Origin: Physcomitrium patens
Taxonomy: Eukaryota > Streptophyta > Bryopsida > Funariales > Funariaceae
Length of the DNA stretch: 64,000 nucleotides
Assembly: GCF_000002425.4 (NCBI RefSeq)
Contig: NC_037271.1
Location: 2,607,272 to 2,671,271 of the forward strand
Direction of reading: 5' to 3'
Position numbers and translations under genes: made by a program. How positions within the stretch are numbered: the stretch's first letter is position 1; every line of letters starts with the position of its first letter. This document shows positions 28,537 through 63,606 of this stretch, in pieces. The notes below the pieces were generated by a model. It did not search any database, had not been told where the DNA came from, and saw only the letters and a list, made by a program, of their open reading frames with translations.

Positions 28537-29070
28537 TATCAAGGACATGAATCTTGAAAAAAATAAACCTTAATATACTCTTGTGTCACTCAAAAGAACT
28601 AGAAAGTCACTCAAAGATGATATGATATTAAATTAGAATAGCTATTATCAAAGATAAAAAGATTAAAAAGTCTTAAAATAAGATTAAAGAATAGTAAGGC
28701 ATTGACAAGAGTGAAGAAGGCTTAAGATTATATATGCCTCCATATATAATTTTAACTAGGAACTATGTGGCAATATCCTATAGGACCTCCAAAGCATGTT
28801 GATTTTGTAAGACACGTATCTTAACTTGCATGGCAAGTTTTCTATATGTAGACCATACAATTAACTTGTTCTATAAGCTACCAATTCATGGTTAATTTTT
28901 TGACCAAGTTCCTTATCTATCAATCAATTATAAACACATATAAAGTCAAAACAATATTTATGAAGCTTCCAAAAAGCTTCTCTAGAAAATATTATGAAAA
29001 TATATTATTTTTACTTATTTCTATTTAATCATATAGATTAATATTAGAATAAATATGTATGTTCATAGCA
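28537..29070 (-). repeat. 5' LTR of element X
   Basis: Plus-strand ends TATCAAGGACATG and GTTCATAGCA; 534 bp. The R-start complement TTGACAAGAGT lies at 28702-28712. The primer-site candidate is at 28524-28534, two bases outside the LTR, and is 10 of 11 complementary to the R start. Confidence 0.7.
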
Positions 29071-29349
29071 ACTTGCTACATTCTTAGATAAATGTATAGT
29101 AATATTTGCATTTAATTTAAAACCACATAAGTCTAAAAGCTTCAAAAGTTCTTACAAGCTTTAAAATTGAGTCAACTTGGACTTTAACTTGGTCTTCCAA
29201 GTCTTCCAAGTATTATAAGTTCTAGATCCAAATCAAATATTAATGGGCTCCACAAAATAATACAAGTGGGTATTTTATTGCAAAAGAATTCTTGTAGTTC
29301 TACTAGAATCACAAGATATATTAAACAAAATCACAAGATATACTTCTAT

Positions 29350-29910
29350 TGTCAAGGACAAGAACTCGATGAAAAAGTAATTCAGACAAGTGAGCCTTTA
29401 CTCAAAGAAAGGTAACAAAATATAAATAAATAAATATGTATATTGAAAGAGAAACTAGAATGGCTATTGCCAAAAGTCAAGAAAACTAGAGACCCTTGAA
29501 TCTAGACTGAAAGCAAGAAAAGAGTTGATAAGAGTGAAGAAGGCTTCACTCTTGTCTCTATATATATTATCTAACTAGGGGCTATGTGGCGACATTCTAT
29601 AGGACCTCCAATATGTGTTGACTTTGTAGGACACATGCCTTGACTTACAAGGCAAGTTTTTCTACGTGTGGGCTACATAGTTAGCTTGATCTTCAAGCTA
29701 ACAATATGTGTGGCACATGGCCAACTTGTTGACCACGTTTCTAATCCAAAAAGTCAATTAAAGACACCTGTGAAGTCAAAGAAGTGTCTATGAAGCTTTT
29801 GGGAAGCTTCCATATTAAATACTACAGAATTAACTTACTTTTATCTACTTTTACTTACTTCCACCTATTTGTATATGTAAGTACTAGCTTACATGAGTAT
29901 GTCCATGACA
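29350..29910 (-). repeat. 3' LTR of complete F2 element
   Basis: 561 bp, same length as the partner at 37128-37688 and very similar by eye. R-start complement TTGATAAGAGT at 29525-29535. Followed on the plus strand by ATCCTCCCTTCT, the complement of the polypurine tract. Confidence 0.9.
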
Positions 29911-30320
29911 TTATCCTCCCTTCTAGGGATGCGTTCCATGAGGAGCGATCACCATATGTTGAGAAAATCTATGATGCAACGAATTGTATTTGCCACATAC
30001 TCTAATCTTTGTTCTCTTCGAAGATGATTGATAGGGCCTTTCAACCATTGGTAGTCTCCCATACTAGGGCGGGAAGACCACCCAATTATTTAATCATTAT
30101 TGAGGCCTTCATAACTTCTTTCGAATAGAACATTTGAAACACCATCAAGAGTTGTTCCTACCTCTAGCAAAAACACCAAACATCGAGAGTTCTTTTCCAA
30201 ATCGTGATACCAAACGTATTGTATCTCGCCATCTATTCGAGGAAGAACATATCATTCTTGAAGATCTTCATCTCGATTGTGTCGTCTTGAAGGTTGTGAT
30301 AATCATAATATCTCGTCTGG

Positions 30321-32261
30321 TGTCGTATTACGTGCTTTCTTGCTCGAGAACGCACCGGACGTCTTGCTGTAGAAAGTAGTATGGAGATTCGCTAATATTC
30401 AAGCAGTTTATCGGTTTTTGATTATTGAAATATAAACGATTCCAAGAATATATCATAAATCTATACGCATGTCCTTCGATTACTTGCCAAAATCCATTTA
30501 TCCCAGCCGGTAGGTCTCTAAACATTACAGAGAACCCCAAACAACCCAATCTGCTAATCTCCGATACCGCTTTATACTCACGACCTTGTATCCACTGACT
30601 GTCTTGTTAGATTAACCCAAAAATTTTCATTCACTCCGCATACTCAATCCTATAGACACCTTTTTAATTCTTCAATCACAGACATAACTTCGATTTCACA
30701 AAACACTCAAGAGTAATCACACTCACTTCATTAAAACCCCGATTCACCAGTACAACACATTGACCTTTCAGCATTGATTGCCAGAAGTCTTCCCAAAATC
30801 CTATGAAGAAAAAAAAACTCCAATTCTCTGTCTTTTCTCCCCAGAAGCATGAAGCTAGCTCTCCCCCCTTAAAACCCTGATTCTTTCCTCCTTCATTTCT
30901 TAACCTATCCTCTCCTTTAATCCTAATTCTCCCTTCTTTCAAACCCTAGCCTCTGAATTTCTTCAATCTTTCATCTTGGATCTAAAATTGGCTCTGCCAT
31001 CAAAACTTTCTCCTCTCTTTTTTACCTTTTAAAAGGTTCTTTTTTCCAGAAACAACATTCTCTGAAACGGCACAGAGAACAGGACAACCTAAAACAGAAT
31101 CAAAACCCCCGTAATTGGGACCACATAGAGTGGCGCGACCAATTCAGGTCTCATATTGGCTAAGAGGCCCGTAGTAAGACCTGGATGTTTCCGTAATTGG
31201 GTCAAATTGGTCCTTCGCATCAGGCTTGCTCAGTCATCGATTTAATCCTTTCAATTCTGTTGACTCCCACTATTGGACTCGAATGGAGTATTTCGTTACT
31301 GATAAGTGTGCCCTGACCGACTATGACGGGGTGTCTGAAACTGGCCCCTGAATATTGGCACTGGAATTAGTCGTTGCTCCCAATATTTGAGGTAACTAAA
31401 CATTAATAAAAGTTCCCTTTCTTTATATTTTCATGGTATACTCATGTTACAACACGACATCCACCCCCTCTGAACTTGTGCATCCTCCGGTATGCACCAA
31501 TTTACCCAATTGCTGTTTGATTTATAATATATTCTCTACGTCTTTGTCCAGTTCATCTTCGTCACCTTCATTATCCAAATCACTTTCATCTTCTTGTTGC
31601 ATACCTAACTTGCATAATTCTCCTTCAATATCATATAATCTTTTTCTTTCTTTTCTTTTAAAATCATCAACTTTCTTATACATAATATTTCCATTCTCCA
31701 AAATACCAATAAAACTCGCATCAAAGGCACCTTCATCTCGCAAGAGTACCTCCTCTTTTGTACCTCCATAATCTCGCTTTATAGTGGAATTGGCTCTACC
31801 GTCAGAGCTTTCTCCTCCATTCTTTGCCTTTTAAAAGGTTCTTTTTTTCAGAAACAATGTTCTCTGAAACAACACAGAGAACAGGACAACCTAAAATGGA
31901 ATCGAAACCCCCGTAAACGAGACCACATTGAGTGGCTCGACCAATTTAGGTCTCATATTGGCTAAGAGGCCCGTAGTAAGACTTGGATGTTCCCGTAATT
32001 GGGTCAAATTGGTCCTTCGCGTCAGGTTTGCTTAGTCATCGATTTAATCCTTTCAATTCTGTTGACTCCCACTATTGGACTCGAACGGAGCATTTTGTTA
32101 CTGGTAAGTGTGCCCTGATCAATTGTGATGGGGTGTTTGAAATTGGCCCCTGAATATTGGCACTGGAATCGGTCATTGCTCCTAATATTCGACGTAACTG
32201 AACATTAATAAAAGTCTCCTTTCTTTATATTTTCATAGTATACTCATGTTACAATACGACA
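30321..32261 (-). mobile_element. Internally deleted F1-related element nested in F2
   Basis: A full 3' LTR lies at 30321-31459 (TGTCGTATTACG...CAACACGACA). A 3' internal piece, 31460-31776, has a polypurine tract (complement of TCCACCCCCTCTG) and an acidic pol tail. A 5' LTR fragment, 31777-32261, repeats 30980-31459. The missing middle runs from within the 5' LTR to the end of pol. This subfamily lacks the telomere-like array of the other F1 LTRs. Flanks TCTGG and CCGAT do not form a target duplication. Confidence 0.7.
31522..31776 (-). pseudogene. F1 pol C-terminal tail fragment
   Basis: The minus strand encodes an acidic, Lys-rich tail (RDEGAFDASFIGILENGN ... DEDELDKDVENIL) ending just before a GGTGCATACCGGAGGATGC-type stretch. 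The same stretch follows the F1 pol at 2921-2955. This links the element to F1, though the tail itself differs from that at 2790-2921. Confidence 0.55.
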
Positions 32262-32437
32262 CCGATAAGTCAGCAAATGAAGGCTCTTGAGTCAAATCCG
32301 CTGGTTGTTGGTTCTCCATCTCCTGAACATCACAACTACAAAGAAGCTACAAACAAGGATTGAAAGTAGAATGTTATCTTGCCTAGATGTTGTTTCTTTT
32401 ATAAAGAAGGTTTTCATCTTGATTTTGATGGATGTCG

Positions 32438-35400
32438 TCAATGAAAAGCCTCCACCACCTTTATTGCATTTATAAGATTCTTTATTGGCTCCCATGTGCA
32501 TTCACTAATACCATATCCGTGCCAATAGACCAGATATTTCAATTTATTTCGACGTCGCCTTGAATCTAAGACTTCTTCTACTTCAAACTCTTCATTATTG
32601 TCCACTTCTATAGGAGGAGGTGGAGCTTGTCGTCTTCTTGGTATGTCTACTATCTTGTATGATTCAAGAAGAGATACGTGGAATACTCGATGGATTTTTA
32701 TTGACTCCAATAGATGTAAACGACATGCAACTGGATTGATTTGTGTAGAAATAGAAAATGGTCCTAGTCTTCGATAGTCCAACTTGTCACAAGAACGAGT
32801 GGTCTTGATATTGCGACAAAGTAGCCATACCTTATCACCCATGAGGAATGGTGGTTGTTCCTTTCGATAGACATCCGCATTGACATTTTGTTGTTCTTGA
32901 GCCTCTTTTAACTACGCCTTCATCATTGCATGTAGCTCTGATAAATGAATCGCCAAATCTTTTGCAGCATGATTATCAACTTTTGAAAAGTCAAAAGTAT
33001 CAAGTCGTGGATGATAATCATAATTAGCAAAGAAAGGTGTTTATTTTGTAGAAAAATGTACCCTGTTATTGTAAGCAAACTCTGCCAATGGCAAAAGAAT
33101 TGTTCAATCATCTTATTGGTAGTTAATAGTACAACTTAAATATTGCTCCAAAACTTGATTAACATGCTCCGTTTGTCCATCGGTTTGAGGATGGAATGTC
33201 GAAGATAGTTTTATATCCACTTTTAGAATCTTGAAAAGAGTCCGCCAAAATCTTGATACAAATTGAATTCCCTTATCTAATATAATATCCTTGGATAATC
33301 CATGATAGCGATAGATATTGTCAAGAAAGAGCTTAGCTATTTCTTCACCTGTGATAGATTTTGTACATGGTACAAAATGTGCCATGTTGGTAAAATGATC
33401 TACTATCACGAATATAGAATCATAAGAACCTGAGATTGGAAGACCCGTGATGAAGTACATAGAAACAGAAGACCATAGTTGTTCTGGAATGGACAATGGC
33501 TGAAGAAGTCCAAAAGGCCAATGACGAGGAGTTTTTGATCTTGAGCAAACATCACATGATTATACAAAATCTTTGACTGCCTTTCACATTTGAGGCCACC
33601 AAAAATCCCTAGATATCAGTTCCAAAGTCTTATTATATCCAAAATATCATGCTGCTGAGAAGTCGTGACGAGCTTGAAGAATACGTAAACGTGCTTCTCC
33701 TTCTAGAACATATAGGCGTCCTTCAAAATAGAGTAGGTTGTTCTTGAATTCAAATTTAGAGGGATCATGAGATTTAGAAGAATTATTCTTGATATCATGA
33801 ACAAGAGAGTCTGAAGACATACTTAACTGGACTTTCTTAAAAAAAGTTAAATCAACAATCAATGTTGATTTTATTGCTCGAAGATGAAATTGCTCTGACT
33901 TCAAGAGAATCGTTCTTTGTTATTCAAAAGCTGCATCTCTTTCTTTTGGTCTAAGATAAGAACGTCTAGACAAGGCATCGGATAAATCTTGTTGTTTTCT
34001 TGGCCGATAAGTGATGATGAACTCGAATCTTGATAAAGACATGCTCCAATAAGCTTGATGATGATTTAATACGCGTGTTGACATAAAATATTCGAGGTTC
34101 TTATGATCCGTATACACGATGACTGAATTGGAAGCGCCTTCTAGATAATGACGCCATTCTTGAAAAGAATCCACAATTACAAGAAGTTCTTTGTCATGGA
34201 TCTCATAATTGATTTTTGCTACTGAGAATTTTCTTGAATGAAAAGCTACTGGATGAAGTTTTTCATCTGTTCTCATTTGTGATAAAATCGCACCCAGAGC
34301 AAAGTCTGATGCATTTGTTTCTATAAAGAATGCTTTGGAAAAATCAACACTATATAAGATTGGTACAGAAACAAACACTATCTTCAAAGATTCAAAAGCA
34401 ACTTTTGCTTCTTGATTCCATTCGAGTTTGTTTTTATTAGTCAAATGTGTAAGTAGAACTGCAACTCGATAGAAGTCTTTCATGAAGATCCGATAGTAGT
34501 TGGCAAATCCCAAAAAACATTGAACATCTCTTACCATTTTTTGGATCTTCCAATCTATAATAGTTTGAACTTTCTTAGGATCTATCATAAGTCCATCATT
34601 TGAAATGATGTAACCTAAAAAATCGACTTGAGTAGTATAGAATACACACTTTTTCATCTTGGCATAGAGTCTTGCATCTCTTAATTTTTGTAACACACGA
34701 CAAATATGAAGTTCATATTTTTTTGGATTCTTAGAATAGATCAAGATGTTGTCTAGATAATAGACCACAAAATCGTCCAAAAACTCTCGAAAAACATCAT
34801 TCATTAGATGTTGAAAAGCTGCTGGTACATTTGTAAGTCCAAAAGGCATGACGTTGTATTCAAAATGTCCATACCTAGTTTGAAACGCAGTCTTCCATTC
34901 ATCTCCTTCTTTGATGCGTACTAGATTGTATGCTCCCTGAAGATCTATTTTTGTATAGATCTTAGCTTGATTCAGCTGATCAAAAAGTCCAGATATTAAA
35001 GGTAGTGCATACATGCTCTTGATGGTAATCTTCTTGAGTCCTCGATAATCAACACACATCTACAATGATCCATCTTTTTTCTTCACAAATAGAATTGGAG
35101 CTCTTGTCGGAGATTTAGAATGGTGTATGAAATTCTTGGCTAGATTTTCTTCAATATACTCCTTGAGTTCAGTCAACTCATTTTATGATAAACTGTAGAT
35201 TATTCCGAATGGCGGTTGTACTCCTTCTTGAAAGTCAATTGAGTAATCATAGGGACGATGTTCCGGGAGTATATCTGCATTCTTTTTTTTGAATACATCT
35301 TGAAATTCTTGATATTGGCGTGGAATGCCACTTGAAGTCTTTTCACCAGTAGAAACAGGTGTGGCATAAATAATATATGGTGATTCTTTCATAGCAGCAT

Positions 35401-36037
35401 GCAAGAAAGCTTTTGTACTTATAAATACGGGTTTAATTGAACTGTACTTATGACTCTCTACTTGATAAACAACACTGTTAGTTATAGTTTTAGAGAAAGT
35501 AAGACTTTGGGAAATCCAATCTATTTGAAGGTTGTATTTTTCCAACCATGATAAACCTAAAATGACTAGATTAGAGGGAGATCTAATGATATTAAATACT
35601 ACAAAACTATTATGACTATTGATTATTACTTCTATAGGAAGGGTTTTGTGAGTAATATCTCCAGAAGACAATGGACGACCATCTATGACTTCTACATGAA
35701 TAGATTTAGTTTTCTTTACTAAAGATATGCTATGTCTTTTAGTAAATTCTTCATCTAAAAAACATGCTGAGGCTCCTGAATCTAACAAAGCAGAGACTTT
35801 GTAATGTTTAGGTCCTAAAATAATATTTAATGTAAAACAAGGAGAGGGCTCTGAGGAGAGAATAGGACCTTTATTAGATGTTGTGCAAGGTTCCATCCGC
35901 ATGGTTCCTATTATAGTTGGACAAACTCGTTTTCCGACATATTGTCTTCTTTCACAGCCATACTCCTTATTTTGTGATTGTGTCATTTTTTTAGACAATG
36001 TTGAGCAGTGTGCTTTGGTTCTCCACAATATAAACAT
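32438..36037 (-). pseudogene. F2 pol: protease, RT, RNase H, integrase, chromodomain
   Basis: A single frame with several stops. Protease: LLDSGASACFLDEEF near 35780. RT: 35059-34700, where the catalytic box reads YLDN instead of YLDD. RNase H: ETNASD where DASD is usual, and YTDHKNLEYF; both changes are Asp to Asn. Integrase: DIILDKGIQF and TDGQTEHVNQ; the first catalytic Asp is replaced (SMYFITGLP). C-terminal chromodomain at about 32640-32480: EVEEVLDSRRRRNKLKYLVYW. Stops lie near 35181, 35060, 33645, 33112 and 32438. Pol is in the -1 phase relative to gag. The chromodomain identifies it as a chromovirus. Confidence 0.9.
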
Positions 36038-36915
36038 AATCCTTCTTGACGACGACGAGTTTTTTCTTGCTCTATAAGAGGTTTGAAACTTACTGCATCA
36101 ATTTACATATCCTCTACTTCTGAATGTATGTGTTGAAGAGGTGTTGGTGTTGCCATTGAATTATAGTAACATTGAGGTCCACTTGTACGGTTCTCAGATC
36201 GGAATTCAAAAAGGTGATTGTCCCACTTCATAGCAAAGTCAATTGTTTGACTCAATGTTTGAGGATCAGGTAAGTTGAGCATTAACTTTTTTACCTCATA
36301 TTGTAATCCGTAGAAAAATTGGCTAATAAGTGCAGCATCATCCCACTTGATATCAATTACAAGTTGTCAAAATTATAAAGCATACAATATTACTAATCGA
36401 TTGTCTTGTCATAAAATATGGATCTTATTGGTTGCAACACGAATTGCATCATGTTGTCCATATATGGATCGAAACTCTACCAAAAAAGCCTCTAGATTAT
36501 CTAATATTGGATCTCGTCGTTCAAGAAAAGATGAAAACCACAATAGTGCTGAACCTGAAAGAAGCGTACCAATGAATCTAACTTGTGATCTTGGAGTTGG
36601 ATAGCTTTGGGATTGAAGTTCAATCACAAGTTGCACTTGATTGATAAATCCTCGAAACTTGAATCTAGTGCCATCAAACTTCTTGGGTAGGACAATTTTT
36701 GGTTCTCTAATATTTGAAGGGCGTTCCACCATAGGAGAAAGGACATGGTTTGGTGCAGATGTTGATGCAGCTCCAACCATTTCTATATCTTCACTTCCTA
36801 CCAATCTTGTTGCTCCTTGTGGTGGTAAATTGAGTTGATGCATTGCAAGCATTAACTCCTTCAATTGTTCTTATATTTGTGCCATTGCACTCTTCATTTC
36901 AACAAGTTTTGCCAT
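35983..36915 (-). pseudogene. F2 gag with CCHC zinc knuckle
   Basis: The likely start is at 36915 (MAKLVEMKSAMAQ); one stop follows 14 codons later. The gag core runs 36864-36409 (KFDGTRFKFRGFINQVQL, ALLWFSSFLERRD). Further stops lie between about 36409 and 36100. The frame ends in a CX2CX4HX4C knuckle (LCLYCGEPKHTAQHCLKK) and then TGA at 35983-35985. A run of seven A (minus strand; T7 at 35986-35992) lies directly before the stop in the phase needed for -1 slippage into pol. Confidence 0.8.
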
Positions 36916-37114
36916 AATAACACTTAGAAGAGAGAAGATGTCTAATATTGCTCAAGACAAATAGAAGAGAGGAATTGGGAACAAAGAAAATACTAAGAAA
37001 AATATTAGTTTAGAAGAGGGTAATCCACAACTTCTAATATGCTTATATCTTATCAAGAAAAAGAGGTAATCCACTCTGAATCAAAATTAGACAAAGCTCT
37101 GATATTGTAGGTGT

Positions 37115-37125
37115 ATTCTTGTCAA
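37115..37125 (-). promoter_or_regulatory. F2 primer-binding site, self-priming type (proposed)
   Basis: On the minus strand it reads TTGACAAGAAT, two bases after the 5' LTR. It is complementary at 9 of 11 positions to the presumed transcript start in this LTR (complement at 37303-37313) and at 10 of 11 to the ACTCTTGTCAA form seen in other F2 copies. A tRNA-like ATATCAGAGC lies about 20 bases further in and is not adjacent to the LTR. Confidence 0.6.
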
Positions 37126-37127
37126 TT

Positions 37128-37688
37128 TGTCAAGGACAAGAACTCGATGAAAAAGCAATTCAGACAAGTGAGCCTTCACTCAAAGAAAGGTATTAAAATA
37201 TAAATAAATAAGTATGTATATTTAAAGAGAAACTAGAATGGCTATTGCCAAAAGTCAAGAAAACTAGAGACCCTTGAAACTAGACTAAAAGCAAGAAAGG
37301 AGTTGACGAGAGTGAAGAAGGCTTCTCTCTTGTCTCTATATATATTATCTAACTAGGAGCTACGTGGCGACGTTTTATAAGACCTCCAATTTGTGTTGAC
37401 TTTGTAGGACACATGCCTTGACTTACAAGACAAGTTTTTCTACGTGTGGGCCACATAGATAGCTTGATCATCAAGCTAACAACATGAGTGGCACATGGCC
37501 AACTTGTTGACCACGTTTCTAATCCAAAAAGTCAATTAAAGACACCTATGAAGTCAAAGAAGCATCTATGAAGCTTTTGGGAAGCTTCCATATTAAATAC
37601 TATAGAATTAACTTACTTTTACCTACTTTTACTTACTTCCACCTATTTGTATATATAAGTACTAGCTTACATGAGTATGTCCGTGACA
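37128..37688 (-). repeat. 5' LTR of complete F2 element
   Basis: 561 bp. Minus-strand TATA box TATATATAG (37336-37344) and, 31 bases downstream, the presumed transcript start ACTCTCGTCAA (complement at 37303-37313). The end borders the TCTAC half of the target duplication. Confidence 0.9.
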
Positions 37689-38664
37689 TCTACAGAGTAA
37701 AAACAATTTATGTCAAAGCAAAACTATAATATCATTTATCACGATGGATTATACAAGGTTTTGAATAATTGCACATTCATTTCAAACTGGCATTGGTATA
37801 CATATTTGTTATTTCTACAAAAGTATATTTTATTTCTTTTATATCATTCTAAAATTAAAAAATATTTTTAAAAATATTATTAAATAAGAATTATAAGAAT
37901 AAATAATAGAGATATTATATTTATAAGAGAATAAATATAAAAAACCATGTATGTATATATATATATATATATAGACACCTAGCTACTCCAAACTCTGAAT
38001 ACTTTGAGTAGTTGGTTCCATTAATTTGCATGAGATGTAGAACCTATGGGCACAATTACCTATGCACACCATTTTTACAGGCCTCCTATGTCGGGATTTT
38101 GAAGCATATCTTTTGACAATCCGTTATTGTAACTTCTACATAAACCTTAACAATAAATAGAAAAAAAAATAGAAAAAAAAAAAAAAAAGAAAAAAAAAAA
38201 ACATGTCACCTATATCTGATGGACCTCATATCAAACGCAATAATTGTAAGCTTTGTATTGGCCAATATTTTTGGTGTACGTCACACCAGAATCTAAAGTC
38301 GAGTCCCATAACATGAATTGGTCGAAATGCTCCAACAGGCTCTGCGGATACACCCACGAGATCCTTCGATAAATCCTAAACCCAGTAAGGACAGGGTATA
38401 TTGATCGGGGTATCTACAGCGCCGCCGTAACTCGTGTCGAGCCATGGTGACCGTGCGAATTGGATCCTCCGGTTGAATGTCTGTGCGCTGTCTTGCTGGT
38501 GTGACTTGTAAGATGCTTCAACTGAGAAGGATCGATGTTCTCTCATTGGTTGCGATACCAATCCCCGCGCCGGAATCGGATGTGCGATTCCTAGCTATGC
38601 CGGTTTCGTTTTCCAAGTTTTTTTGAGAATTCTTAGATGCGGGCGAAGTGCGGGAGAGGTAGAG
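37689..38664. other. Boundary between repeats and gene island; DUF599 gene promoter region
   Basis: 37689-38300 is AT-rich with a (TA)n run at 37951-37972 and an A-rich tract at 38159-38201. From about 38300 base composition becomes more GC-rich. This is likely the promoter and 5' UTR of the gene starting at 38665. I could not place a TATA box with confidence. Confidence 0.5.
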
Positions 38665-41826: not shown

Positions 41827-45187
<3,361 letters not shown>

Positions 45188-50107: not shown

Positions 50108-51776
50108 ATAATTTTAAGCGCTTCTAAAATATTTTCTAAATTGAAGTTTGTTTTGAAAATATACAATATAATAATAACTCATATTAGTACATTTATATTC
50201 TACAAAAAATAATTCACTTAATACAAATTGTATGATTTTTTTAACAAGCTAAAAATTAATCATTTTTTATATTTAAGTCATAATAAAAAAATTATTATTC
50301 ATTAAATAATATTTTTCTAACTTTGAATTTTAATATTTGTTCATAGTTAGAATTTTTTTATATTAAAATTATTTAATAATGATGTAAACTACAACATATA
50401 TTATTGTATTTTTTTCTTACAAAACTACCATGATGATTTAAACTTAAATTTATATTTTTTTATAATTTTGAAATATATTGAAATTATTATTTTTAATTGT
50501 TGAAAAAAAATATATTATGCAATAAAAAATATAAATTGAATCTTCATATTAATCTTCTTTTTTAAAATATCTATTTCTTATGCAAAAAAGAAAAATGAAT
50601 ATAATTTATGTGTGTATCTGAATATATATATATATGTATAAGATTTTATCTAATTTTAATATATGCATAATTATTTTTGATGCTTAAAAATAATCATTAT
50701 ATCTTTACTATTACACAATGGATAATATAAAAATAACCTATTGAAATTATAGACTTATTGTTAAATGAAATAACTGTACAGTATGGTTAAACGTTTTTTA
50801 TAACTTTTATATTATTTTGATCTTATAAACAACATATATTTAACTAGCACAAATCATTATAATTAATAAATATAATGATATGTTGAATCACATGTAGCAT
50901 GAGATCAAGGTAAAAAATAGTGTACATACAACATATTATTATATTTCTAAAAATTCAACTATGTAATTTTAAAATCTATATAATCTTTTTTTAAAAGGTT
51001 TTTATTTACTATAGTGAGAGACTATGATACAGTCATAAGGTGTAGAATTATTTCATAAACTCAATTTATTAATTATGAAAATATTTAAATGCTATTTAAA
51101 TACTATAATAATAAATAATTGATTTAAAATATTGAATAATCTTTCAAATAAACAATAATTCTTAAACCTCCAAATAAATTTTATAAATAATTTAAAAATA
51201 GCTATGTTTAAATTATTTAGACCAAATTTTTTTTTTAATTATAGCTATGTTTTAATTATAAAAGACCACAATTTTTTTTTTTTATTGTATATTACTTTTT
51301 TTTTTTTTTTTTTTTTGTACTCCTCTTGACAAATCCAACTAAATACTTCAGAAGATTAAAACATTAGTAAAGACGTTTTTGTAGAGAATTTTCTTATTTA
51401 TAGCATATTTCGAAGCAACTTTTAAACTTTATTTTAAACTAAAAAAATCTTATTATAAGTGAAGTAAGTGGTTTAGAAATTACAAATTCTAAAAGACATC
51501 TTATCTTTGATGTTAATCACGTAGATAATAATGTCTTTTGAATCAAGTAATTTTAATATTCAATTATTTGAATGATTTAGATACAATTGCATAAAACCAC
51601 ATTAAGGGACTTTTGTGGTCTGTTTTTATATCAATAAATGTCATTTTTATAAATAGAGCATAAATCCTAAAAACTCGTCTACAAAGTACAAGGTATTAGG
51701 GACATATTCCTTAGAACCTTTTAGAGAGAAGTTTCTAGAAGCTCTAGAAAGGAAGTCTCTGGAACCTTCTAGAAGA

Positions 51777-51904
51777 GAAGCTTCTAGAAGCTTCTAGAAA
51801 GGAATCCCCTGGAACTTTCTAGAAGCTTCCTAGTTAATAGAAGTAGCTCGAGAAGTTTCTAGAACCTTCTAGAAATGAAGCCTTTGGAACCTTCTAGAAG
51901 CTTC
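51777..51904 (+). promoter_or_regulatory. Heat-shock-element clusters in F3 LTR promoter
   Basis: Runs of alternating GAA and TTC triplets at exact 5-base spacing, the binding pattern of heat-shock factors: 51777-51799 (five units), 51812-51829 (four), 51852-51874 (five) and 51887-51904 (four). The last ends 42 bases upstream of the TATA box at 51946. The 3' LTR has equivalents at 57447-57469, 57482-57499, 57522-57544 and 57557-57574. Confidence 0.75.
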
Positions 51905-51945
51905 CTAGTTAATAGAAGTAGCTCGAGAAGCTTCCTAAGTAGGAG

Positions 51946-51954
51946 TATATATAG
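51946..51954 (+). promoter_or_regulatory. TATA box of F3 LTR
   Basis: TATATATAG, located 32 bases upstream of the A at 51978 proposed as the first transcript base. The same motif is at 57616-57624 in the 3' LTR. Confidence 0.75.
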
Positions 51955-52115
51955 GGATCGAGGCTGAAGAGTTCTTCAGTCTCGACAACACATCTCTTGG
52001 AGTTCTAGCTCACCTTTCTGGTGTTGTTCTTGTACTCATCTGTTTAATCTAGTTCTGCCACTTCTTCTTGAACTTCTTGTTAGATTTCAAGTCTGTATTT
52101 TGTGTCCGTGACAGT

Positions 52116-52126
52116 TTGTCGAGACT
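52116..52126 (+). promoter_or_regulatory. F3 primer-binding site, self-priming type (proposed)
   Basis: TTGTCGAGACT begins two bases after the 5' LTR and is a perfect 11-base complement of 51978-51988 (AGTCTCGACAA), the predicted 5' end of the element's own RNA. No match to an initiator-tRNA primer site (TGGTATCAGAGC) is present next to the LTR. Confidence 0.7.
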
Positions 52127-52393
52127 ACACTAACTTGAGATATGAGAGCTAGTTCTTTCTTAGTAGAGTGTGGATTACCCCTCTACTTGAAGGTATACTA
52201 GCATTTTTTAGAGGTTGCGGATTACCCTCCTCTAAACTGATACTTCTTCTGTTACAATATTGGAGTCTTATTCTTCTTGGAGAGAGTGGATTACCCCTCT
52301 TCTTGAAATTCTTAAGGCGTTTTATAGGTTGTGGATTACCCTCCTATAAACCAATATTGCCTCTTATAGGGTCATTTTTGTCCTTCTTTTAGA

Positions 52394-53419
52394 ATGGCCA
52401 GAGGTCAAGACATTAGTATGACAAAAAGTTCGGAGTCTAAGTTAGATGCTATTATGAATGCCCTCGCTACGTTATGACAAAGAATTGCAGAGATTGAAGG
52501 AGTGGTGGCAAGGCTTCATAATGATGGAGTATCTGGGATAGCACAATCTAAACTACACCAGCCTCAAATTTCGGCACTTGGAGAAACAACTTTACCTCAG
52601 GTTCGACAAGAACCACTAGTTCTACAACATAAGGAGCCTCGAGTTAGCCTTCCAGATAAGTTTGATGGAACACGTTCCAAGTTTCGAGGATTCGTCAATC
52701 AAATCAGGTTGATAACAGTTTTACAGCCCGAACGATATTCAACGGAGGAGTCACGTGTTGGGCTTGTTAGAACCTTACTTACGGGACAAGCTCTATCATG
52801 GTTTGCTCCTTTGTTTGAGAAACGATCATCCATATTAAATAACTTCGAAACCTTTTTGGAAGCATTTGCGGAAGCATTTGGTGAACACGATAAGGTTCGA
52901 TGAGCTACAACAAAGATTCGGTCGCTACGACAAGGGATGCGTTCTACATCAATCTATGCTTCGGATTTCAGGCAATTAGTATGCGACATCAATTGGGATG
53001 AAGAAGCGTTGATGAGTCAATTCTATTGGGGTTTAAGAGATGATGTGAAGGATTTGCTGTTAACTCTTCCTGATCCACGAACGCTCAATGAAGCCATTAG
53101 CCAAGCTGTGAAGTGCGATAATCGCCTATTCCAATGTCGCCAAGACCAACGCTCAAGACAACATACAATTCGCCATGCTCCAACTATGTCGGCAAGCGGT
53201 GTGAATTCGCATTCAGAGGTGGAAGACATGCAAATTGATGCGGTACGTATCAAATCTCTTACTATAGAAGAAAAAAAGCGACGTATGGAGGAAAATTTAT
53301 GCTTGTATTGCGGTGGAGAAGGCCACAAAGTCGGAAACTGCCCCAAAAAGCAAAATCGAGGCATAGTCAAGACTAGGGGAGTATTTGTTCAGGAAAACGA
53401 GGATGCCCAACCACAGTAG
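52394..53419 (+). pseudogene. F3 gag with CCHC zinc knuckle
   Basis: Starts MARGQDISMTKSSESKLDAI. It has one frame to the natural end at 53417-53419 except for TGA stops at 52475 and 52901, each plausibly a former CGA. The core (LPDKFDGTRSKFRGFVNQ, LSWFAPLFEKRSS, FYWGLRDDVKDLLLTLPDP) is the Ty3 retrotransposon gag domain. A CX2CX4HX4C knuckle (CLYCGGEGHKVGNC) lies near 53300-53340. Pol follows in the -1 phase and overlaps the gag end. Confidence 0.88.
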
Positions 53420-56400
53420 GAACCGTGCGGCTGGACAATGAAATATCCCAACAACAATCAGGTTCCTTTCTTTCTGCCCAACCTGCACTTTGTTTTACAA
53501 TCCCTCTGTTTATCGGCCCTTAAAAACTGAGAACCTTAGCACTACTAGACTCAGGATCATCTGCTTGTTTTTTAGACAAAGAATTTGCAAAGCGTCATAA
53601 GATCCCTTTAGTACAAAAATCAAAACCTGTTCATGTTGAGGTCATAGATGGGCGACCTTTATTGTCTGGTAGCATCACCCATGAATCAAAACCTATAGAA
53701 GTAACGTTTAAAGACCATAGTAGTCATATTATTTTTAATATTATTAGAACCCCATCAAATCCTATTATTCTTGGTCTTTCTTGGTTGGAAAAACATAATC
53801 CATTGATAGATTCGAGGTTGCGGAAGATGACTTTTCTCACAAAACCACCCAAGAAAAAACCTAGTAAAAAACCTCGAAAAAAGAAATCCTTATTCATTGG
53901 AGCAAGAGCGTTTATAAGATCATCTAAGGAAGGCACTCTATTTGTCATTTATGCGGCTCCAACTACCGAGGAGAAGATCTCAACAGCAAGTATACCAAAG
54001 CAATATAAAGATTTTGAAGACGTGTTTCAAAAGAAGAACGTCGACATACTACCGGAACACCGACCATATGATTGTGCCATAGACTTGCAAGAAGGAGCAC
54101 AACCACCTTTTGGCCCAATCTACAATCTATCGCAAACGGAGTTGGCAGAGTTACGAAAGTACATCGACGAGAATCTAGCCAAGAACTTCATTCGTCATTC
54201 AAAATCATCAGCTGGAGCACCCATCTTATTTGTGAAGAAGAAAGATGGATCATTACGGATGTGTGTGGACTATCGAGGCCTCAATAAGGTAACAAAGAAA
54301 AATCGTTACCCATTACCCTTGATTTCTAGTCTCTTAGAACAACTTGGACGTGTGAAGATCTTTACAAAAATTGATCTAAGGGGAGCTTATAATCTCGTAC
54401 AAATCAAGGAAGGAGATGAGTGGAAGACAGCATTCCGTACAAGGTATGGTCATTTCGAATATAACGTCATGCCTTTTAGTCTTACCAATGCTCCAACGGT
54501 TTTCCAACATATGATGAATGACATCTTTCGAGAACACCTCAACGATTTTGTTGTCATCTACTTGGACGATATTCTAATATTCTCTAAAAACGAGGAAGAG
54601 CATGAGGAGCATGTTCGTTTGGTCTTGGAGAAACTACGCAAGTGACGACTATATGCCAAATTAGAAAAGTGTTTATTTCACCAGACGGAGATGGAATTTT
54701 TGGGGTTCATTGCGACTACAGAAGGTTTGAAGATGGACCCCAAGAAAGTAGAAGCAATCATGTCTTGGGAGGTTCCGAAGACGGTTAGAGACGTACAATG
54801 CTTTCTTGGTTTTCCTAACTTCTATCGGATCTTCATCAAGAATTATTCTCAAGTTGCTGCTCCTCTCACTCGATTAACATGCAAAGATAAGTTGAAATGG
54901 GGACCTTTGGTGGAGAAGGCGTTTCAAGATTTGAAGACAGCATTTACTACAGCTCCAATTTTGGTACATCCAGACTTTACAAAGGCCTTCTATTTAGAAA
55001 CTGATGCTTCAGATTTTGCTTTGGGAGCTGTGCTTTCACAAATGAGTGAAGATAAGAAGCTCTATCTAGTTGCATTCTATTCTCGGAAGTTCTTTGCTGC
55101 TGAAATCAATTATGAGATCCACGATAAGGAACTTCTTGCTATAGTGGATTCTTTCGAAGAATGGCGTCACTTTCTTGAAGGAGCTACAAATCCAATAACC
55201 GTATATACGGATCACAAGAATTTGGAGTATTTCATGACAGCTCGAGTTTTAAATCGGCGTCAAGCTCGGTGGAATATGTCGCTATCTAGATTTGATTTTG
55301 TTATCACTTATTGACCTAGAAGGAAGCAAGGACTATCTGATGCTTTATCAAGGAGATCTTATCTTGCACTAAAGGCTAGAGAAGCAGCGTTTGATCAACA
55401 ATGTACAACGTTATTGAAGCGAGAGAGATTTCAACTTTGTGCTACTATTGTATCATTTGATGCTGACTTCCTAAACCAGGTACGTGCTATGACCATTAAA
55501 GATTCAGTAGCCATTGATATCAAGCAAAGTACCAATGATGACAAGTTCAAGGTGGAGGGAGATCTTTTATACTTTGAAGAGCGATTGTACATTCCAAAAG
55601 GACTAGCACTACTCCGAGTTCTTCAATCTCGCCATGATTTTCCAGCTGCAGGACATTTTGGATTCAATAAGACCTTGGAGCTTATTTCCCGAGATTTTTG
55701 GTGGCCCCAAATGTCGAAGGATGTGAAAGATTTTGTCCTCTCTTGTGACATCTGTTCAAGATCTAAGAATCCTCGGCATCGCCTTTATAGACTTCTACAG
55801 CCATTGCCAATTCCATGTCGACCATGGTCTTCAATTTCTATGGACTTCATCACGGACTTGCCATCATCAAACTCATTTCACAACATCTTTGTCATGGTAG
55901 ATCGGCTTACGAAGATGGCACACTTTGTTCCTTGTAAGAAGACATCGTCCAGTGAAGTCACAGCAAGACTCTTTCTCGATAATGTGTATCGATATCATGG
56001 ACTACCAGATGATATCATATCAGATCGAGGTACCCAGTTCGTGTCAAAGTTTTGGAGATCTCTCTTTGGGATATTGAAGGTGGATATCAAGCTTTCTTCA
56101 GCTTTTCATCCTCAAACTGATGGCCAAACGGAACGGGTGAACCAAGTCTTGGAGCAGTACTTATGATGCAGCATCAACTATTAGCAAGACGATTGGACTG
56201 CATATCTACCGCTAGCCGAGTTTGCATATAACAACACCCTCCATGCGTTGACTCAACAAACACCATTCTTTTCCAACTATGGGTATCATCCGAAGCTTGA
56301 TTTATTGAGTCCGTCAACAAATAACAATCCAGCAGCTGAAGGATTTGCGAAGCAACTATCAGAGCTTCAAACTATGTTGAAGCTTCAATTACAATCCGCT

Positions 56401-56895
56401 CAAGAATCCTATAAGACGTCTACAGATAGATTTCGGAATCCAACACCTACTTTCAAAGTTGGAGACAAAGCTTGGCTTCTTCGACGAAATATCAAGACCA
56501 AGCGACCATGTGATAAGTTGGACTATCGAAGATTGGGACCATTTATCATCCAGAAGCAAATTAATCCAGTGGCATACCGGCTAGAGTTACCGGCTTCTAT
56601 GAAGGTACATCCAGTCTTTCATGTTTCTCTGTTGGAACCTTATCGAAAGTCATCTTTTCCTAGAAGAGTGCAATGTCTGCCACCTAGTATTGAAATCGAG
56701 AACCACGAAGAATACGAGGTTGAAAAGGTATTGGATTCACGGCAAAGGTGGGAAAAGTTAGAATATCTTGTTCATTGGTGCAGCTATGACATTAATGAGC
56801 GAACGTGGGAGTCAACTGAAAATCTTGCGAATGCGCCACAAAAGGTACAGGAGTTTCATCAACGACATCCCGATAAACCTAAATCAATTCGATGA
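53401..56895 (+). pseudogene. F3 pol: protease, RT, RNase H, integrase, chromodomain
   Basis: A single frame with stops at 53521, 54643, 55312 and 56164. Protease: [15 protein letters not shown] (about 53550). RT: about 54100-54660 with an intact [11 protein letters not shown]. RNase H: about 54960-55330 with ETDASDFALGAVLSQ, KELLAIVDSFEEW and YTDHKNLEYF. Integrase zinc finger H-H-C-C (about 55630-55765). Integrase core: SMDFITDLP, IISDRGTQF and TDGQTERVNQ, so all catalytic acids are present. Chromodomain near 56705-56850: EVEKVLDSRQRWEKLEYLVHW. Pol extends upstream in the same phase to the gag knuckle (a GKRGCPTTVGT block matches the F2 pol start), with a further stop at 53374. Confidence 0.92.
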
Positions 56896-57011
56896 TAGCT
56901 TCTTTCTGAAGCTTGTTCTCCCAACAATATAAGAAAAAGGGAGAGCACCAGCAAAATTCATTGTTGATGTAGTTATTTTCTCCAAGATAGATCGTAGTTT
57001 GGTCTTTTGAA

Positions 57012-57338
57012 ATGGATAGCCAAGAGATAGATACTATGCCAGTCAGAGTATCGCAACCAAGTAGCTCACGAAGGCGACCCCGAGATGAAGAACTACATGT
57101 ACCACGACGACGACGGAGGATACCGAGTAACCGATCACTGGTGATCGTATTTGAGATCGAGCCTGCTTACAATGGTCAACCAGAAGGCGTGTTTGCAGGA
57201 CAATTTCACAATGAGGACACGGAAGTTCATGCTTGGTCAGAAGTCAAAGGCGTGGGCCACTACCGTTGGCTTCAAGGGTCGATGAACCACTTGCCTCGTG
57301 AACAACAGTTGGAGTTCATAGCAGAAGTTATGCGATAA
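57012..57338 (+). CDS. Additional post-pol ORF of F3 chromovirus, 108 aa, unknown function
   Basis: An intact frame between pol and the polypurine tract, whereas gag and pol are full of stops. The N-terminal half is Arg-rich and looks like a nuclear-localisation or nucleic-acid-binding segment (SSSRRRPRDEE, PRRRRRIPSNR). The C-terminal half has LVIVFEIEP, EGVFAGQFHNEDTE and YRWLQGSMNHLPREQ. No family was recognised. Related, decayed copies follow pol in both F2 elements (29949-32319 and 19253-19559) with the same order of motifs and a start codon at a similar distance from pol, so it is a conserved feature of these elements. Whether it is translated from its own RNA is unknown. Confidence 0.7.
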   Translation: MDSQEIDTMPVRVSQPSSSRRRPRDEELHVPRRRRRIPSNRSLVIVFEIEPAYNGQPEGVFAGQFHNEDTEVHAWSEVKGVGHYRWLQGSMNHLPREQQLEFIAEVMR

Positions 57339-57398
57339 ATCTTCATTTTCTTGCGTTGGTACTGATCAACAACATTGCTTCTCAGAGACCTCGAAGCT

Positions 57399-57412
57399 AA
57401 AGGAGGGGGTGA
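57399..57412 (+). other. F3 polypurine tract
   Basis: AAAGGAGGGGGTGA immediately before the 3' LTR, the expected primer for plus-strand DNA synthesis. Confidence 0.85.
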
Positions 57413-57783
57413 TGTTAGGGACATATTCCTTAGAACCTTTTAGAGAGAAGTTTCTAGAAGCTTCTAGAAAGGAATCCCCTGGAACTTTCTAGAAGCTTCC
57501 TAGTTAATAGAAGTAGCTCGAGAAGTTTCTAGAACCTTCTAGAAAAGAAGCCTCTGGAACCTTCTAGAAGCTTCCTAGTTAATAGAAGTAGCTCGAGAAG
57601 CTTCCTAAGTAGGAGTATATATAGGGATCGAGGCTGAAGAGTTCTTCAGTCTCGACAACACATCTCTTCGAGTTCTAGCTCACCTTTCTGGTGTTGTTCT
57701 TGTACTCATCTGTTTAATCTAGTTCTGCCACTTCTTCTTGAACTTCTTGTTAGATTTCAAGTCTATATTTTGTGTCCGTGACA
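57413..57783 (+). repeat. 3' LTR of F3
   Basis: 371 bp, starts TGTTAGGGACA and ends TGTCCGTGACA. TATA 57616-57624; R-start AGTCTCGACAA 57648-57658. Followed by the CAAGG target duplication. Confidence 0.95.
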
Positions 57784-59198
57784 CAAGGTCGAAAAAAAAT
57801 AGTAAATCATAAATACATTGAACTTTCAAAATCATTTTATTTGATGTATAACATATATTTACAACAAAGCAAATAATGTTTACTAATTACAAAACACATA
57901 TCACTTACCAAAGTATCAATCTTACACAAATAAAGAATATAACACAATAATGACATACTATTTATATATATAAAAACACAAAAACAAACAAAAGAGAAAA
58001 GAAAAGAAATCCTAGTAGATTTAAATCCGGTAAAAATAAAATTAGAAATTAAGAATCTTACTATTTAGATTTAGTTCTTTGATTTATTTCAATCAAGGTT
58101 GCATTACGTACTTAAAGTAAGTCCTTAACTACCAATAATATACATTGGTTCAGACTGTTATAATATATAATTCTATTTGAAGTATTAATTATTGAATTTC
58201 ATACTTACATTCTAACAAAAAAAATATCAATTCCTATGTGTTTTAATTTCAACCTAAATGTGTTGAAAGTGGTATGTAATGTTTAGTTTTATTTTAGAAC
58301 AAAGAACCACAAAATCAAATTATAATCCTTTAAATAAATTCTATTTTATATTAAAAATATTTTATGAATAAATATAATTAATATTTTATAATATTAATTT
58401 TTTTAATCTTAATAATTTTCTAATATTAACTTATTTCTATAATAGATTCATATAAAGAAATAAAAAAATAAAAAATAAAAATATAATCTTATCAAATAAA
58501 GATATAAATTATTATTTTTTTTCTAAAATAATAGTTTTAAATTATAAGTATACAATTTTTCTTAGTTTAGCTTTGTGATACTTAATTTATATTTATTTAG
58601 ATATAATAATATATAAATTCTTTTAATAGAAAAATCTAACTCAATATTCAAATTAGAAGATTGATTAAACATGCTTAATCAATCTTAGTAGATTTATATA
58701 AAATCATATATAATGAAAATAAAAAATAAAAATAAACAAATAAATAAATTTAACAAAAACTTTATTACTTAGTGGAATGATTGTAGATAGCACTTAAACT
58801 ATGAACCTACAAAGATAATTCTCTATTAAGATGGTCCTTTGGAACATTGGATAATTAATCCACCTCTTATCAAATATATCAACTCATAAATACAACTTTC
58901 CAAATTGCTCAATTTGTTTTTACATCTTTGAGATATTAAGAACTTGTCCAAAAGTGCATTCTTTTGGCTATTTTATCAAGAAAATAGAAACTCACATATC
59001 AAACAACAACAAAGCAATTGAGAGAAAAGAGAGAGAGGCAAAGTATATGGGAACCAATATCCAAGGAGTCAAACTCCACATAAGCACACACATACTCAAA
59101 CAAGAGACAAAATGATGCACTACAATGGAAGTAAGAAAACCCAAGAGCATCATTGTACCAACAATGCAAAAGAGGGAGGAAGAAATATATATATACAT

Positions 59199-61347: not shown

Positions 61348-63606
61348 ATGGCTGTTGCGGCATTCAAATCCACGACCCGTCGACAGTGGGACATACGGGG
61401 GGTAGAGATTGAGCCATACTCTTCGCTGAACACGAGCCCGACGAGACGGTCTGTGTCGCGCAATATCTCTCCAACGCGCCGTTCGACGTCACGTAACCCT
61501 AGTCCAACTCGCCGCTCAACGTCAAAAGCTCCAAGTCCCACACGTCGTCGTTCGACATCCAAAGATCCTAGTTCCACGCGCAGACGTTCAGTTTCGAAGG
61601 CTCCCAGTCCAACTCGCAGACGTGCGGTGTCCAAGGCTCCTAGTCCAACTCGCAGACGTTCGGTGTCCAAGGCCCCCAGTCCAACTCGCAGACGCGCGAC
61701 GTCTAAAGCTCCCAGTCCGACTCGCAGACGCTCGACGTCCAAAGCTCCCAGTCCTACTCGTGGTCGTCGCGGAGTGTCGCGCAATCCAAGCCCAACTCGC
61801 CGCGCCGTATCCAAAGCTCCGAGCCCCACGCGCCGGGCCGTATCGAGAGTTGTGAGCCCTGTGAAAGCCAGGAGGCGCTCGCCCTCGCGAAATCCAAGTC
61901 CCACTCGCGGACGTAGAGGTGTGTCACGGGGTCCGAGTCCAACTCGGGCTGCTCGTCTGACCCAAGTCACTCCTCCAAGCACTCAATCTCACCCCGCCAG
62001 TCCATCAAGACGACGGGAGCCTTCTGTAGGACTTCGCTCCCGTGCCACTTCTCCCCAGAGGAGCAGCATCGTCAGGCCTGGGGAGCGCGTCCGTCGAAGA
62101 ACTACTAATGCTGCCACTACCGACGTGCCTTATTCACCATTTCTTCCCGGCTCTCCTGGTGCCTCCGATTCTTCGCTCATTCCGACTCGTCAGAGTGGAA
62201 TTGGGTTAAGGGGATCGTCTCGGATGGTCCCGAGCGATTCCGAGAGAAGTACGGTCAGGACTCTTGCGAGCGACTCTGAGAGCGAGGTAGAGCCACGGTA
62301 CATGCGGAGAGCGGATAGGACCGGAAGCATAAGCACTCACCGGGATAGCTCCGATAACGAGAGCGTTCAGTCGTCAAGATCTACAAGGAGGAACCCAATT
62401 GGAATGCGAGATAGAGTGTCGCGAAGAACTTCGAGCACGCAAATGGAGGTGCGAAGGTCATTGGCCAATTTGGAGCTCTCAGACTCAGCTACACCAGTCT
62501 ACTATCAGAAACCCAAACCTGCAAGTGTGGAGGATCATCACCATCGCATTGTTGGAAGAACCGATGGAGACGTCCAAGTGGAGGGGAGAATTGAGGAGAA
62601 GACTATTCAAGAGGTTCACACGCAAACGAAAGTTCATACCCTATGTTACAATTGCCTGTATGATGTGTCTGCGCCCACGGATGCTCCTGTGGATGCTGTA
62701 TCTCCCGTAGGGCCCATAAAATTGAAAGTGCTTGGCACTTCGAGAGAGGCTCCTGCGCCTGGAGACGTAGACTTCATGGCTTTATACACCGCGAGATGTG
62801 AAGAGCTTCGGAAAGCTGTGTCAGATGCGAGGAACGAGCTGGAGAATGTCAAGGAGGAGAGTCTGCGGAAAGTTATAGAAGCCAAGTTGGAGGTTTCAGA
62901 GAGGAAAGTCTCGGAACTTTGGTCACAGTATGCCACCGAGGAACAAAGATGTCTTCATCTGGTGAATGCTGTGAAGGACATCAAAGAAGGGTCCGTAGAC
63001 TCTTTGGATGTGGAAACGGACGAACTACAGCAGCGGATTCCTATTCCGGTGGAGGACATGAAGCCCCAGCACAATCACCGATATCCAATGGAGGACATGG
63101 ACGAGTCGGACTTTATTAGACAATCCCTAGATGAGGAAGCGGCACGGTACTTTGAGGAGTGCGCGATCATTGCAAACTTCGATGCAAATGTCATAGATGT
63201 AGACGACATATCCGTGAGTAGTGGCAGGGTGAGTGACGGCGAGACGACGGTGTGTGACGATCTCAGACCATCTTCGAGGAGACAAAGCTCGGATAGTCAA
63301 GAGGTAGTGTCGATAAGGAAGAAGGAGATTAAACCCCTTGATGATGAGGGCATGCTATTGCCTTGGTTGGATTGGGAACCGGAAGTCGATCTCGGAAGGA
63401 AGGAGCGCATTGAGAAAGCAGTATGCGACTTTCGAGAATGGAAGAGTGCATGGGCTCAGAAGTCAGTGGAGTGGGGGAGGAGTTCTAATCGGGAGCGAGG
63501 AAAAGATGAAGGTGTCGTGAACGTTGACGAGTTCCTGTTTGAGAGGACCCGATTGCAACCTCGCATTTCACAAGGCAGGATGCTCGTCTGCGGCGGAAAG
63601 CGGTGA
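61348..63606 (+). CDS. SPTR-repeat basic protein with coiled coil, 752 aa
   Basis: One uninterrupted frame from ATG 61348. Residues about 30-197 hold 13 SPTR motifs in units of roughly 10-12 residues (SPTRRRSVSKAP type); each S-P-x-R fits a proline-directed kinase site on a basic tail. Residues 200-425 are Ser/Arg-rich and probably disordered. A CYNC pair lies near residue 434. A charged helix near 470-545 (RCEELRKAVSDARNELENVK) is a likely coiled coil. An acidic stretch (SDFIRQSLDEEAARYFEE) follows, and the C-terminal region contains LPWLDWEPEVDLGRKERIEKAV. It resembles plant proteins annotated only as Ser/Arg-repetitive or microtubule-associated-like; I cannot assign a function. Repeats may vary in number. 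Confidence 0.85.
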   Translation: MAVAAFKSTTRRQWDIRGVEIEPYSSLNTSPTRRSVSRNISPTRRSTSRNPSPTRRSTSKAPSPTRRRSTSKDPSSTRRRSVSKAPSPTRRRAVSKAPSPTRRRSVSKAPSPTRRRATSKAPSPTRRRSTSKAPSPTRGRRGVSRNPSPTRRAVSKAPSPTRRAVSRVVSPVKARRRSPSRNPSPTRGRRGVSRGPSPTRAARLTQVTPPSTQSHPASPSRRREPSVGLRSRATSPQRSSIVRPGERVRRRTTNAATTDVPYSPFLPGSPGASDSSLIPTRQSGIGLRGSSRMVPSDSERSTVRTLASDSESEVEPRYMRRADRTGSISTHRDSSDNESVQSSRSTRRNPIGMRDRVSRRTSSTQMEVRRSLANLELSDSATPVYYQKPKPASVEDHHHRIVGRTDGDVQVEGRIEEKTIQEVHTQTKVHTLCYNCLYDVSAPTDAPVDAVSPVGPIKLKVLGTSREAPAPGDVDFMALYTARCEELRKAVSDARNELENVKEESLRKVIEAKLEVSERKVSELWSQYATEEQRCLHLVNAVKDIKEGSVDSLDVETDELQQRIPIPVEDMKPQHNHRYPMEDMDESDFIRQSLDEEAARYFEECAIIANFDANVIDVDDISVSSGRVSDGETTVCDDLRPSSRRQSSDSQEVVSIRKKEIKPLDDEGMLLPWLDWEPEVDLGRKERIEKAVCDFREWKSAWAQKSVEWGRSSNRERGKDEGVVNVDEFLFERTRLQPRISQGRMLVCGGKR

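What the first reader, a model, noticed from the sequence alone, without database searches (positions are those of the whole stretch)
51978..52126. F3 chromovirus appears to self-prime reverse transcription with its own RNA 5' end
The 11 bases TTGTCGAGACT (52116-52126), two bases inside the 5' LTR boundary, are a perfect complement of 51978-51988. That site starts 32 bases downstream of the TATA box (51946), where transcription is expected to begin. In Tf1 of fission yeast and its sushi relatives, the first 11 or so nt of the RNA fold back onto the primer site and prime cDNA synthesis. The well-known plant chromovirus clades are thought to use initiator tRNA-Met. The geometry here is seen directly; the mechanism is inferred.
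Basis: partly seen in the sequence, partly recalled or inferred. Interest (0 to 1): 0.88.

Follow-up and report, generated by a model that had tools for sequence, protein, structure and literature searches.

The report
Moss retrotransposon primed by own RNA
A jumping element in a moss genome most likely starts copying its RNA into DNA with the first 11 letters of that same RNA instead of a borrowed tRNA, a mechanism already predicted for its moss and club-moss clade; a hairpin noticed here may hide the spare copy of that primer.

Summary

Sequence evidence supports the mechanism. A related lineage in the same genome has a different primer with a matching site (ACTCTTGTCAA / TTGACAAGAGT): three of 11 pairs changed on both sides. 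Pairing is perfect in 42 of 59 copies parsed (60 examined). RNA begun at 51978 is predicted to fold onto the site, and none of 20 tRNAs compared fits.

For this element it is no surprise. It is a chromodomain element of, I infer, the moss Physcomitrium patens. Self-priming was already predicted for most moss and club-moss Tcn1 chromoviruses (PMC6317226); the tRNA-Met contrast holds for other plant clades.

Not in the finding: a 12-bp inverted repeat across the predicted start (51958-51985) pairs primer nt 1-8 with an upstream arm and shows the same three double changes. That arm precedes the start, so only the 3' copy of the primer, or read-through RNA, can form the hairpin. I suggest it hides the spare primer. 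Start-site and cDNA data are lacking.

The parts
51689..51693 (+). target site duplication CAAGG (left copy)
   Evidence: read; matches 57784-57788
51694..52113 (+). 5' LTR, 420 bp
   Evidence: direct repeat
51946..51953 (+). TATA box TATATATA
   Evidence: 32 nt before the primer site
51958..51969 (+). upstream arm of the U3/R inverted repeat (TCGAGGCTGAAG)
   Evidence: covaries with the primer in the second lineage
51974..51985 (+). downstream arm of the inverted repeat (CTTCAGTCTCGA), covering primer nt 1-8; tetraloop 51970-51973
51978..51988 (+). proposed RNA 5' end and self-primer AGTCTCGACAA
52114..52115 (+). 2-nt spacer between LTR end and primer binding site
   Evidence: GT in 27 of 27 lineage A copies
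52116..52126 (+). primer binding site TTGTCGAGACT
52162..52187 (+). leader hairpin 1 with GGATTACC
   Evidence: predicted fold
52207..52236 (+). leader hairpin 2 with GGATTACC
   Evidence: predicted fold
52279..52302 (+). leader hairpin 3 with GGATTACC
   Evidence: predicted fold
52321..52350 (+). leader hairpin 4 with GGATTACC
   Evidence: predicted fold
52394..53419 (+). gag region with CCHC knuckle, broken by stops; pol follows in another frame
   Evidence: no Pfam match for the piece 52937-53416
54232..54642 (+). reverse transcriptase domain (RVT_1)
54973..55293 (+). RNase H domain
55822..56112 (+). integrase core (rve); zinc-binding domain just upstream
56713..56865 (+). chromodomain with the three aromatic-cage residues
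57400..57412 (+). polypurine tract AAGGAGGGGG and TGA before the 3' LTR
   Evidence: read
57413..57783 (+). 3' LTR, 371 bp (49 bp shorter than the 5' LTR); carries a second copy of the inverted repeat and primer sequence (57648-57658)
57784..57788 (+). target site duplication CAAGG (right copy)
   Evidence: read
37303..37313 (-). primer site (ACTCTCGTCAA) of the second-lineage element 29349-37689
37115..37125 (-). primer binding site (TTGACAAGAAT, two mismatches to this copy's primer) of the second-lineage element

Best explanation
The element is a chromodomain Ty3/gypsy retrotransposon of the Tcn1 / Tf1-sushi type in a moss. Its RNA starts at or next to 51978. The first 11 nt fold back onto the primer binding site at 52116-52126, the element's own RNase H cuts after nt 11, and the freed 3' end primes minus-strand DNA through the 2-nt spacer into U5. 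Plus-strand copying of the primer then rewrites the primer site, which would keep the two in step. Shown: the complementarity, its position, its covariation between two lineages. Predicted: the fold. Inferred: the start site, the cleavage and the priming itself, by analogy with Tf1. A further inference: the inverted repeat across the start (51958-51985) folds only where its upstream arm is transcribed, that is at the 3' end of genomic RNA and in read-through RNA, and there hides the spare copy of the primer.
For: Exact 11-nt complement, 32 nt from a TATA box with a pyrimidine-purine start; 0 of 5000 shuffles. Lineage A (this element): perfect pairing in 19 of 27 copies; lineage B (second element of the window and relatives): 23 of 32; 59 of 60 loci parsed, L087 dropped. 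A and B differ at primer nt 2, 6 and 8, each compensated in the primer site. Crossing A with B lowers standard pairs from 10.75 (A) and 10.66 (B) to 7.9 (A primer, B site) and 8.9 of 11 (B primer, A site). The match ends at 11 nt on both sides in 51 of 59 copies. RNA starting at 51978 has nt 1-11 on the site in its minimum-energy fold; nt 2-9 pair with probability 0.79-1.0 in A and 0.83-1.0 in B over three lengths each. Neither site has the TGG that a mature tRNA 3' end demands; 20 tRNAs gave at most 7 of 12 in register and 7 contiguous anywhere. Tf1: first 11 bases, cut between 11 and 12 (PMC7175516, passages). Clade prediction: PMC6317226 (passages).
Against: No transcript-start, cDNA or biochemical data. 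Copies within a lineage are not independent: the covariation is in essence one comparison of two lineages. A third lineage was not found; most of those searches did not complete. 17 of 59 copies do not pair perfectly, among them the window's own lineage B copy with two mismatches. The last pair (nt 11) is weak in prediction: 0.51-0.53 in A, 0.32-0.37 in B, and 11 of 200 shuffles fold as well as the 158-nt leader. Only 20 tRNA genes (Lys, Asn, Gln, Arg, Ile, Asp) were compared; tRNA-iMet was judged only by a recalled 12-mer (4 of 12 in A, 6 of 12 in B). The extra duplexes of the Tf1 'pretzel' were found only weakly and without a covariation test. Tcn1 placement has no tree of its own here. For Selaginella SM-Tcn1 neither tRNA priming nor self-priming was found (PMC2864245, passages).
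Confidence: 0.87

Rival explanations
1. A cellular tRNA, or a tRNA fragment, primes; the self-complement is incidental.
For: Most plant chromoviruses use tRNA-Met (PMC6317226, passages).
Against: No TGG within 12 nt of the LTR end in either lineage; best fit 7 of 12 in register and 7 contiguous anywhere among 20 tRNAs; three compensated changes between lineages would be unexplained. The tRNA set was incomplete.
Confidence: 0.04
2. The primer is the 5' RNA end, but it acts in trans: the 5' end of one RNA pairs with the site of the other RNA in the particle.
For: The same complementarity and covariation allow it; particles hold an RNA dimer (PMC7175516, passage).
Against: Folding in cis is favoured in prediction; trans pairing was not modelled, and nothing specific points to it.
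Confidence: 0.06
3. The inverted repeat and the complementarity serve the DNA level, as a palindromic promoter element at the start site, and the primer-site match is secondary.
For: The repeat lies between TATA box and start, reaching 8 nt past it, in both lineages.
Against: Its sequence differs at four of 12 pairs between the lineages while pairing is kept, unlike a fixed protein-binding sequence; it does not account for the complement beside the LTR end.
Confidence: 0.03

Closest known systems
Tf1 of Schizosaccharomyces pombe (Tf1/sushi group)
   Same: First 11 nt of RNA complementary to a site downstream of the 5' LTR; chromodomain element (PMC7175516, PMC10085805, passages).
   Different: Priming is described as established for Tf1, only inferred here; the flanking pretzel duplexes are weak here; a start-spanning inverted repeat was not mentioned in the passages I read.
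Tcn1-clade chromoviruses of mosses and club-mosses
   Same: Moss host (inferred here), aromatic-cage chromodomain, no tRNA site, predicted self-priming (PMC6317226, PMC3350952, passages).
TAR-lineage copia elements (Houba, Osr-1)
   Same: Plant elements predicted to self-prime (PMC6317226, passages).
   Different: Ty1/copia domain order and no chromodomain (general knowledge).
Tekay, Reina, CRM, Galadriel chromoviruses
   Same: Plant Ty3/gypsy elements, most with a chromodomain.
   Different: tRNA-Met is the usual primer; the aromatic cage is absent in seed-plant members (PMC6317226, passages).

Membership tests
Tf1/sushi-type self-priming elements | RNA 5' end complementary to the site after the 5' LTR | tested here: met
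   the start site itself is predicted from the TATA box
Tf1/sushi-type self-priming elements | RNA starts at the first primer base | not testable with these tools
   no transcript data held
Tf1/sushi-type self-priming elements | RNase H cut after the primer and priming from it | not testable with these tools
   needs cDNA or biochemistry
Tf1/sushi-type self-priming elements | two further duplexes beside the primer site (pretzel) | tested here: inconclusive
   lineage A 9 bp (nt 107-115 with 156-164, one G-U) and 7 bp (28-34 with 169-175); lineage B only 6-7 bp, each with a G-U (one copy of each lineage)
Tcn1 clade | chromodomain with aromatic cage after integrase | tested here: met
   Chromo 1.3e-14; Y, W, Y aligned with the CDYL chromodomain; which residues form the cage is recalled
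Tcn1 clade | groups with Tcn1 and Tf1/sushi in RT-INT trees | not tested
   no named reference set held; of the best 120 of 7465 relatives, the only rows naming a species are Xenopus, Anolis and Morchella
Tcn1 clade | non-seed plant host (moss or club-moss) | tested here: inconclusive
   470 Mb genome with a 105,340-bp contig, which I recall as the P. patens mitochondrial length
tRNA-primed plant chromoviruses | site starting with TGG, complementary to a tRNA 3' end | tested here: not met
   20 tRNAs only

The most novel reading that the evidence does not exclude
The LTR carries a three-part switch. One primer sequence can pair with the primer site or with an upstream arm, and the arm lies outside RNA that starts correctly. 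So only the 5' copy of correctly started genomic RNA can prime, while the 3' copy and read-through RNA lock the primer in a hairpin. Arm, primer and primer site evolve together.
Probability: 0.35. Interest if true: 0.66.

Novelty: new member of a known kind. Interest (0 to 1): 0.5.

Why it matters
It gives self-priming in a plant lineage evolutionary evidence (compensatory change) beyond a sequence match. If the host is P. patens, as I infer, a chromodomain gypsy family of it (RLG1) is reported as transcribed (PMC7466625, passages), so start sites and cDNA ends can be checked directly. If the hairpin reading holds, it would explain how a self-priming element, which carries its primer sequence twice in its RNA, uses only the right copy.

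Tried and rejected
tRNA priming: 20 tRNA genes compared, none fits. Rfam: no family reached its threshold in 51690-52700; five matches with E up to 1, all far below the cut-off. Viral contigs: no relative of the RNase H piece by the patterns used. A third lineage for covariation was sought by pattern, Pfam family, DNA and protein, mostly unanswered; the one answered (protein P0016) led to two copies with the lineage B primer. Old relics in the window have the lineage B primer, with decayed sites where I could see one, and add no new covariation. The LTR comparison placed the 49-nt gap differently (17 differences) (5 differences by my count); I use neither for a date.

I considered that the start-spanning inverted repeat is chance. 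Of shuffled LTRs, 5 of 300 (A) and 2 of 300 (B) hold some 12-nt-arm repeat with 11 or more pairs anywhere; this element's LTR scores 11 and the window's decayed B copy only 10. Alone the repeat is weak evidence; its same register and compensated changes in both lineages are what count.

Full report
What is there. The window holds a 6.1-kb LTR element, 51694-57783, flanked by CAAGG. Pieces of its open frames match reverse transcriptase, RNase H, integrase zinc-binding and core domains, the Tf2-1-type SH3 domain and a chromodomain; the gag piece has no Pfam match. The copy is broken by stops. Shuffled LTRs do not give it at the site beside the LTR (0 of 5000).

Host. The window lies in a 470-Mb assembly of 101 contigs. 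One contig is 105,340 bp, which I recall as the mitochondrial genome length of Physcomitrium patens; the size also fits. The species name is thus my inference. Published work on that moss reports 5092 copies of the chromodomain gypsy family RLG1 and its transcription in protonema (PMC7466625, passages). I cannot say which named family this element belongs to.

Covariation. A second, related element lies on the minus strand (29349-37689). I examined 60 loci with the 5' region: eight and thirty from DNA searches, twenty from reverse-transcriptase hits chosen across the list of 150, and two from a search with a related integrase. L001 and L039 are the window's own two elements. In 59 of 60 I could place primer and site by likeness to the two known forms, which favours intact copies, as do the search hits; L087 was dropped, and in L063 the copy placed lies beside the search match. 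Lineage A (27) has AGTCTCGACAA (24) and TTGTCGAGACT (21) as commonest forms, perfect pairing in 19; lineage B (32) has ACTCTTGTCAA (27) and TTGACAAGAGT (26), perfect in 23. At three positions both partners differ between the lineages and still pair. The pairing stops at 11 nt in 51 of 59 copies; one more pair on one side occurs in 8. TATA distance is 32 nt in 7 of 7 A copies and 31 in 27 of 27 B copies that a stricter parse accepted, of 38 examined. One caution: if the primer is copied into the new site at each replication, covariation is a footprint of the mechanism rather than proof of selection; either way it argues for priming by this sequence.

Folding. RNA from 51978 to 52135 has the 11-bp primer-site duplex in its minimum-energy form; energy z -1.87, with 11 of 200 shuffles folding as well. 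For 51978-52400, z is -3.60, 0 of 100 shuffles. Over three lengths each, nt 2-9 pair with the site at 0.79-1.0 (A) and 0.83-1.0 (B); nt 11 only at 0.51-0.53 and 0.32-0.37, and in B the minimum-energy form leaves the first base of the site open.

tRNA test. Twenty tRNA genes of the genome, taken from the 63 scored of 25,691 candidates, were compared, two of them from the short contigs C100 and C101. In register the best is 7 of 12; the longest run anywhere is 7. Some 3' ends called by ARAGORN may be off by a base. The set covers Lys, Asn, Gln, Arg, Ile and Asp only. A recalled tRNA-Met site fits at 4 of 12 (A) and 6 of 12 (B), and neither site has TGG in its first 12 nt.

The inverted repeat. 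Across the predicted start, -20 to -9 pairs with -4 to +8 around a 4-nt loop: TCGAGGCTGAAG/CTTCAGTCTCGA in A, ACAAGAGTGAAG/CTTCACTCTTGT in B. All 12 pairs are standard in 21 of 27 A copies and 24 of 32 B copies; crossing the lineages lowers the mean from about 11.7 to 9.9 and 8.8. Three pairs changed on both sides, at the same three primer positions, and one on one side. The hairpin is predicted at -16 to -18 kcal/mol, about as stable as the primer-site duplex (-14 to -16). In RNA of the LTR that includes the arm it forms at 0.95 or more at every pair except the outermost one in A (0.77). Because its upstream arm precedes the start, the 5' end of proper genomic RNA lacks it while the 3' end has it. 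Masking the 3' copy of the primer is my preferred reading; bringing the RNA ends together, or a DNA role, remain open.

Against what is known. Tf1 uses its first 11 bases, cut by RNase H after base 11 (PMC7175516, passages). [quoted passage not shown] our element meets that rule. So the core of the finding is a member of a predicted group and may well be among the elements surveyed; I could not open the supplements. Searches of the held library and the passages I read showed me no report of compensatory change or a start-spanning hairpin. But I read only passages of ten papers (PMC6317226, PMC2864245, PMC4659654, PMC3601003, PMC7466625, PMC3350952, PMC7175516, PMC10085805, PMC4600332, PMC5445492), saw others only as listings, and most papers of subscription journals are not held, so this is no proof of absence from print.

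Noticed in passing
52162-52350: Four leader hairpins (predicted), each with GGATTACC at the tip and differing stems, follow the primer site; lineage B has two. Exact: four in 10 and three in 12 of 27 A copies, two in 17 of 32 B copies; with one mismatch allowed, four in 24 of 27 and two in 30 of 32. Perhaps a packaging signal.
   Followed up: partly
51728-51904: The U3 of this element holds 12 overlapping three-unit GAAnnTTCnnGAA-type motifs, the pattern of heat-shock elements (shuffle mean 0.016, maximum 2 in 1000 shuffles); the window's lineage B LTR, the only B copy tested, has none. The heat-shock-element reading is recalled, not tested; the four papers listed by one library search did not look relevant by title.
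   Followed up: partly
29349-37689: Second related chromodomain-type element on the minus strand with LTRs 94% alike and a further repeat pair nested inside it.
   Followed up: yes
8817-9336, 18742-19242, 21101-22100, 28541-29062: Old LTR relics related to lineage B with the lineage B primer sequence still readable; a fifth, 4198-4906, was printed on one strand only and not checked for it.
   Followed up: partly
44498-45187: Open frame with the C-terminal part of squalene epoxidase, probably exons of a host gene.
   Followed up: no
61348-63606: 752-aa open frame rich in SPTRR repeats with no Pfam match.
   Followed up: no
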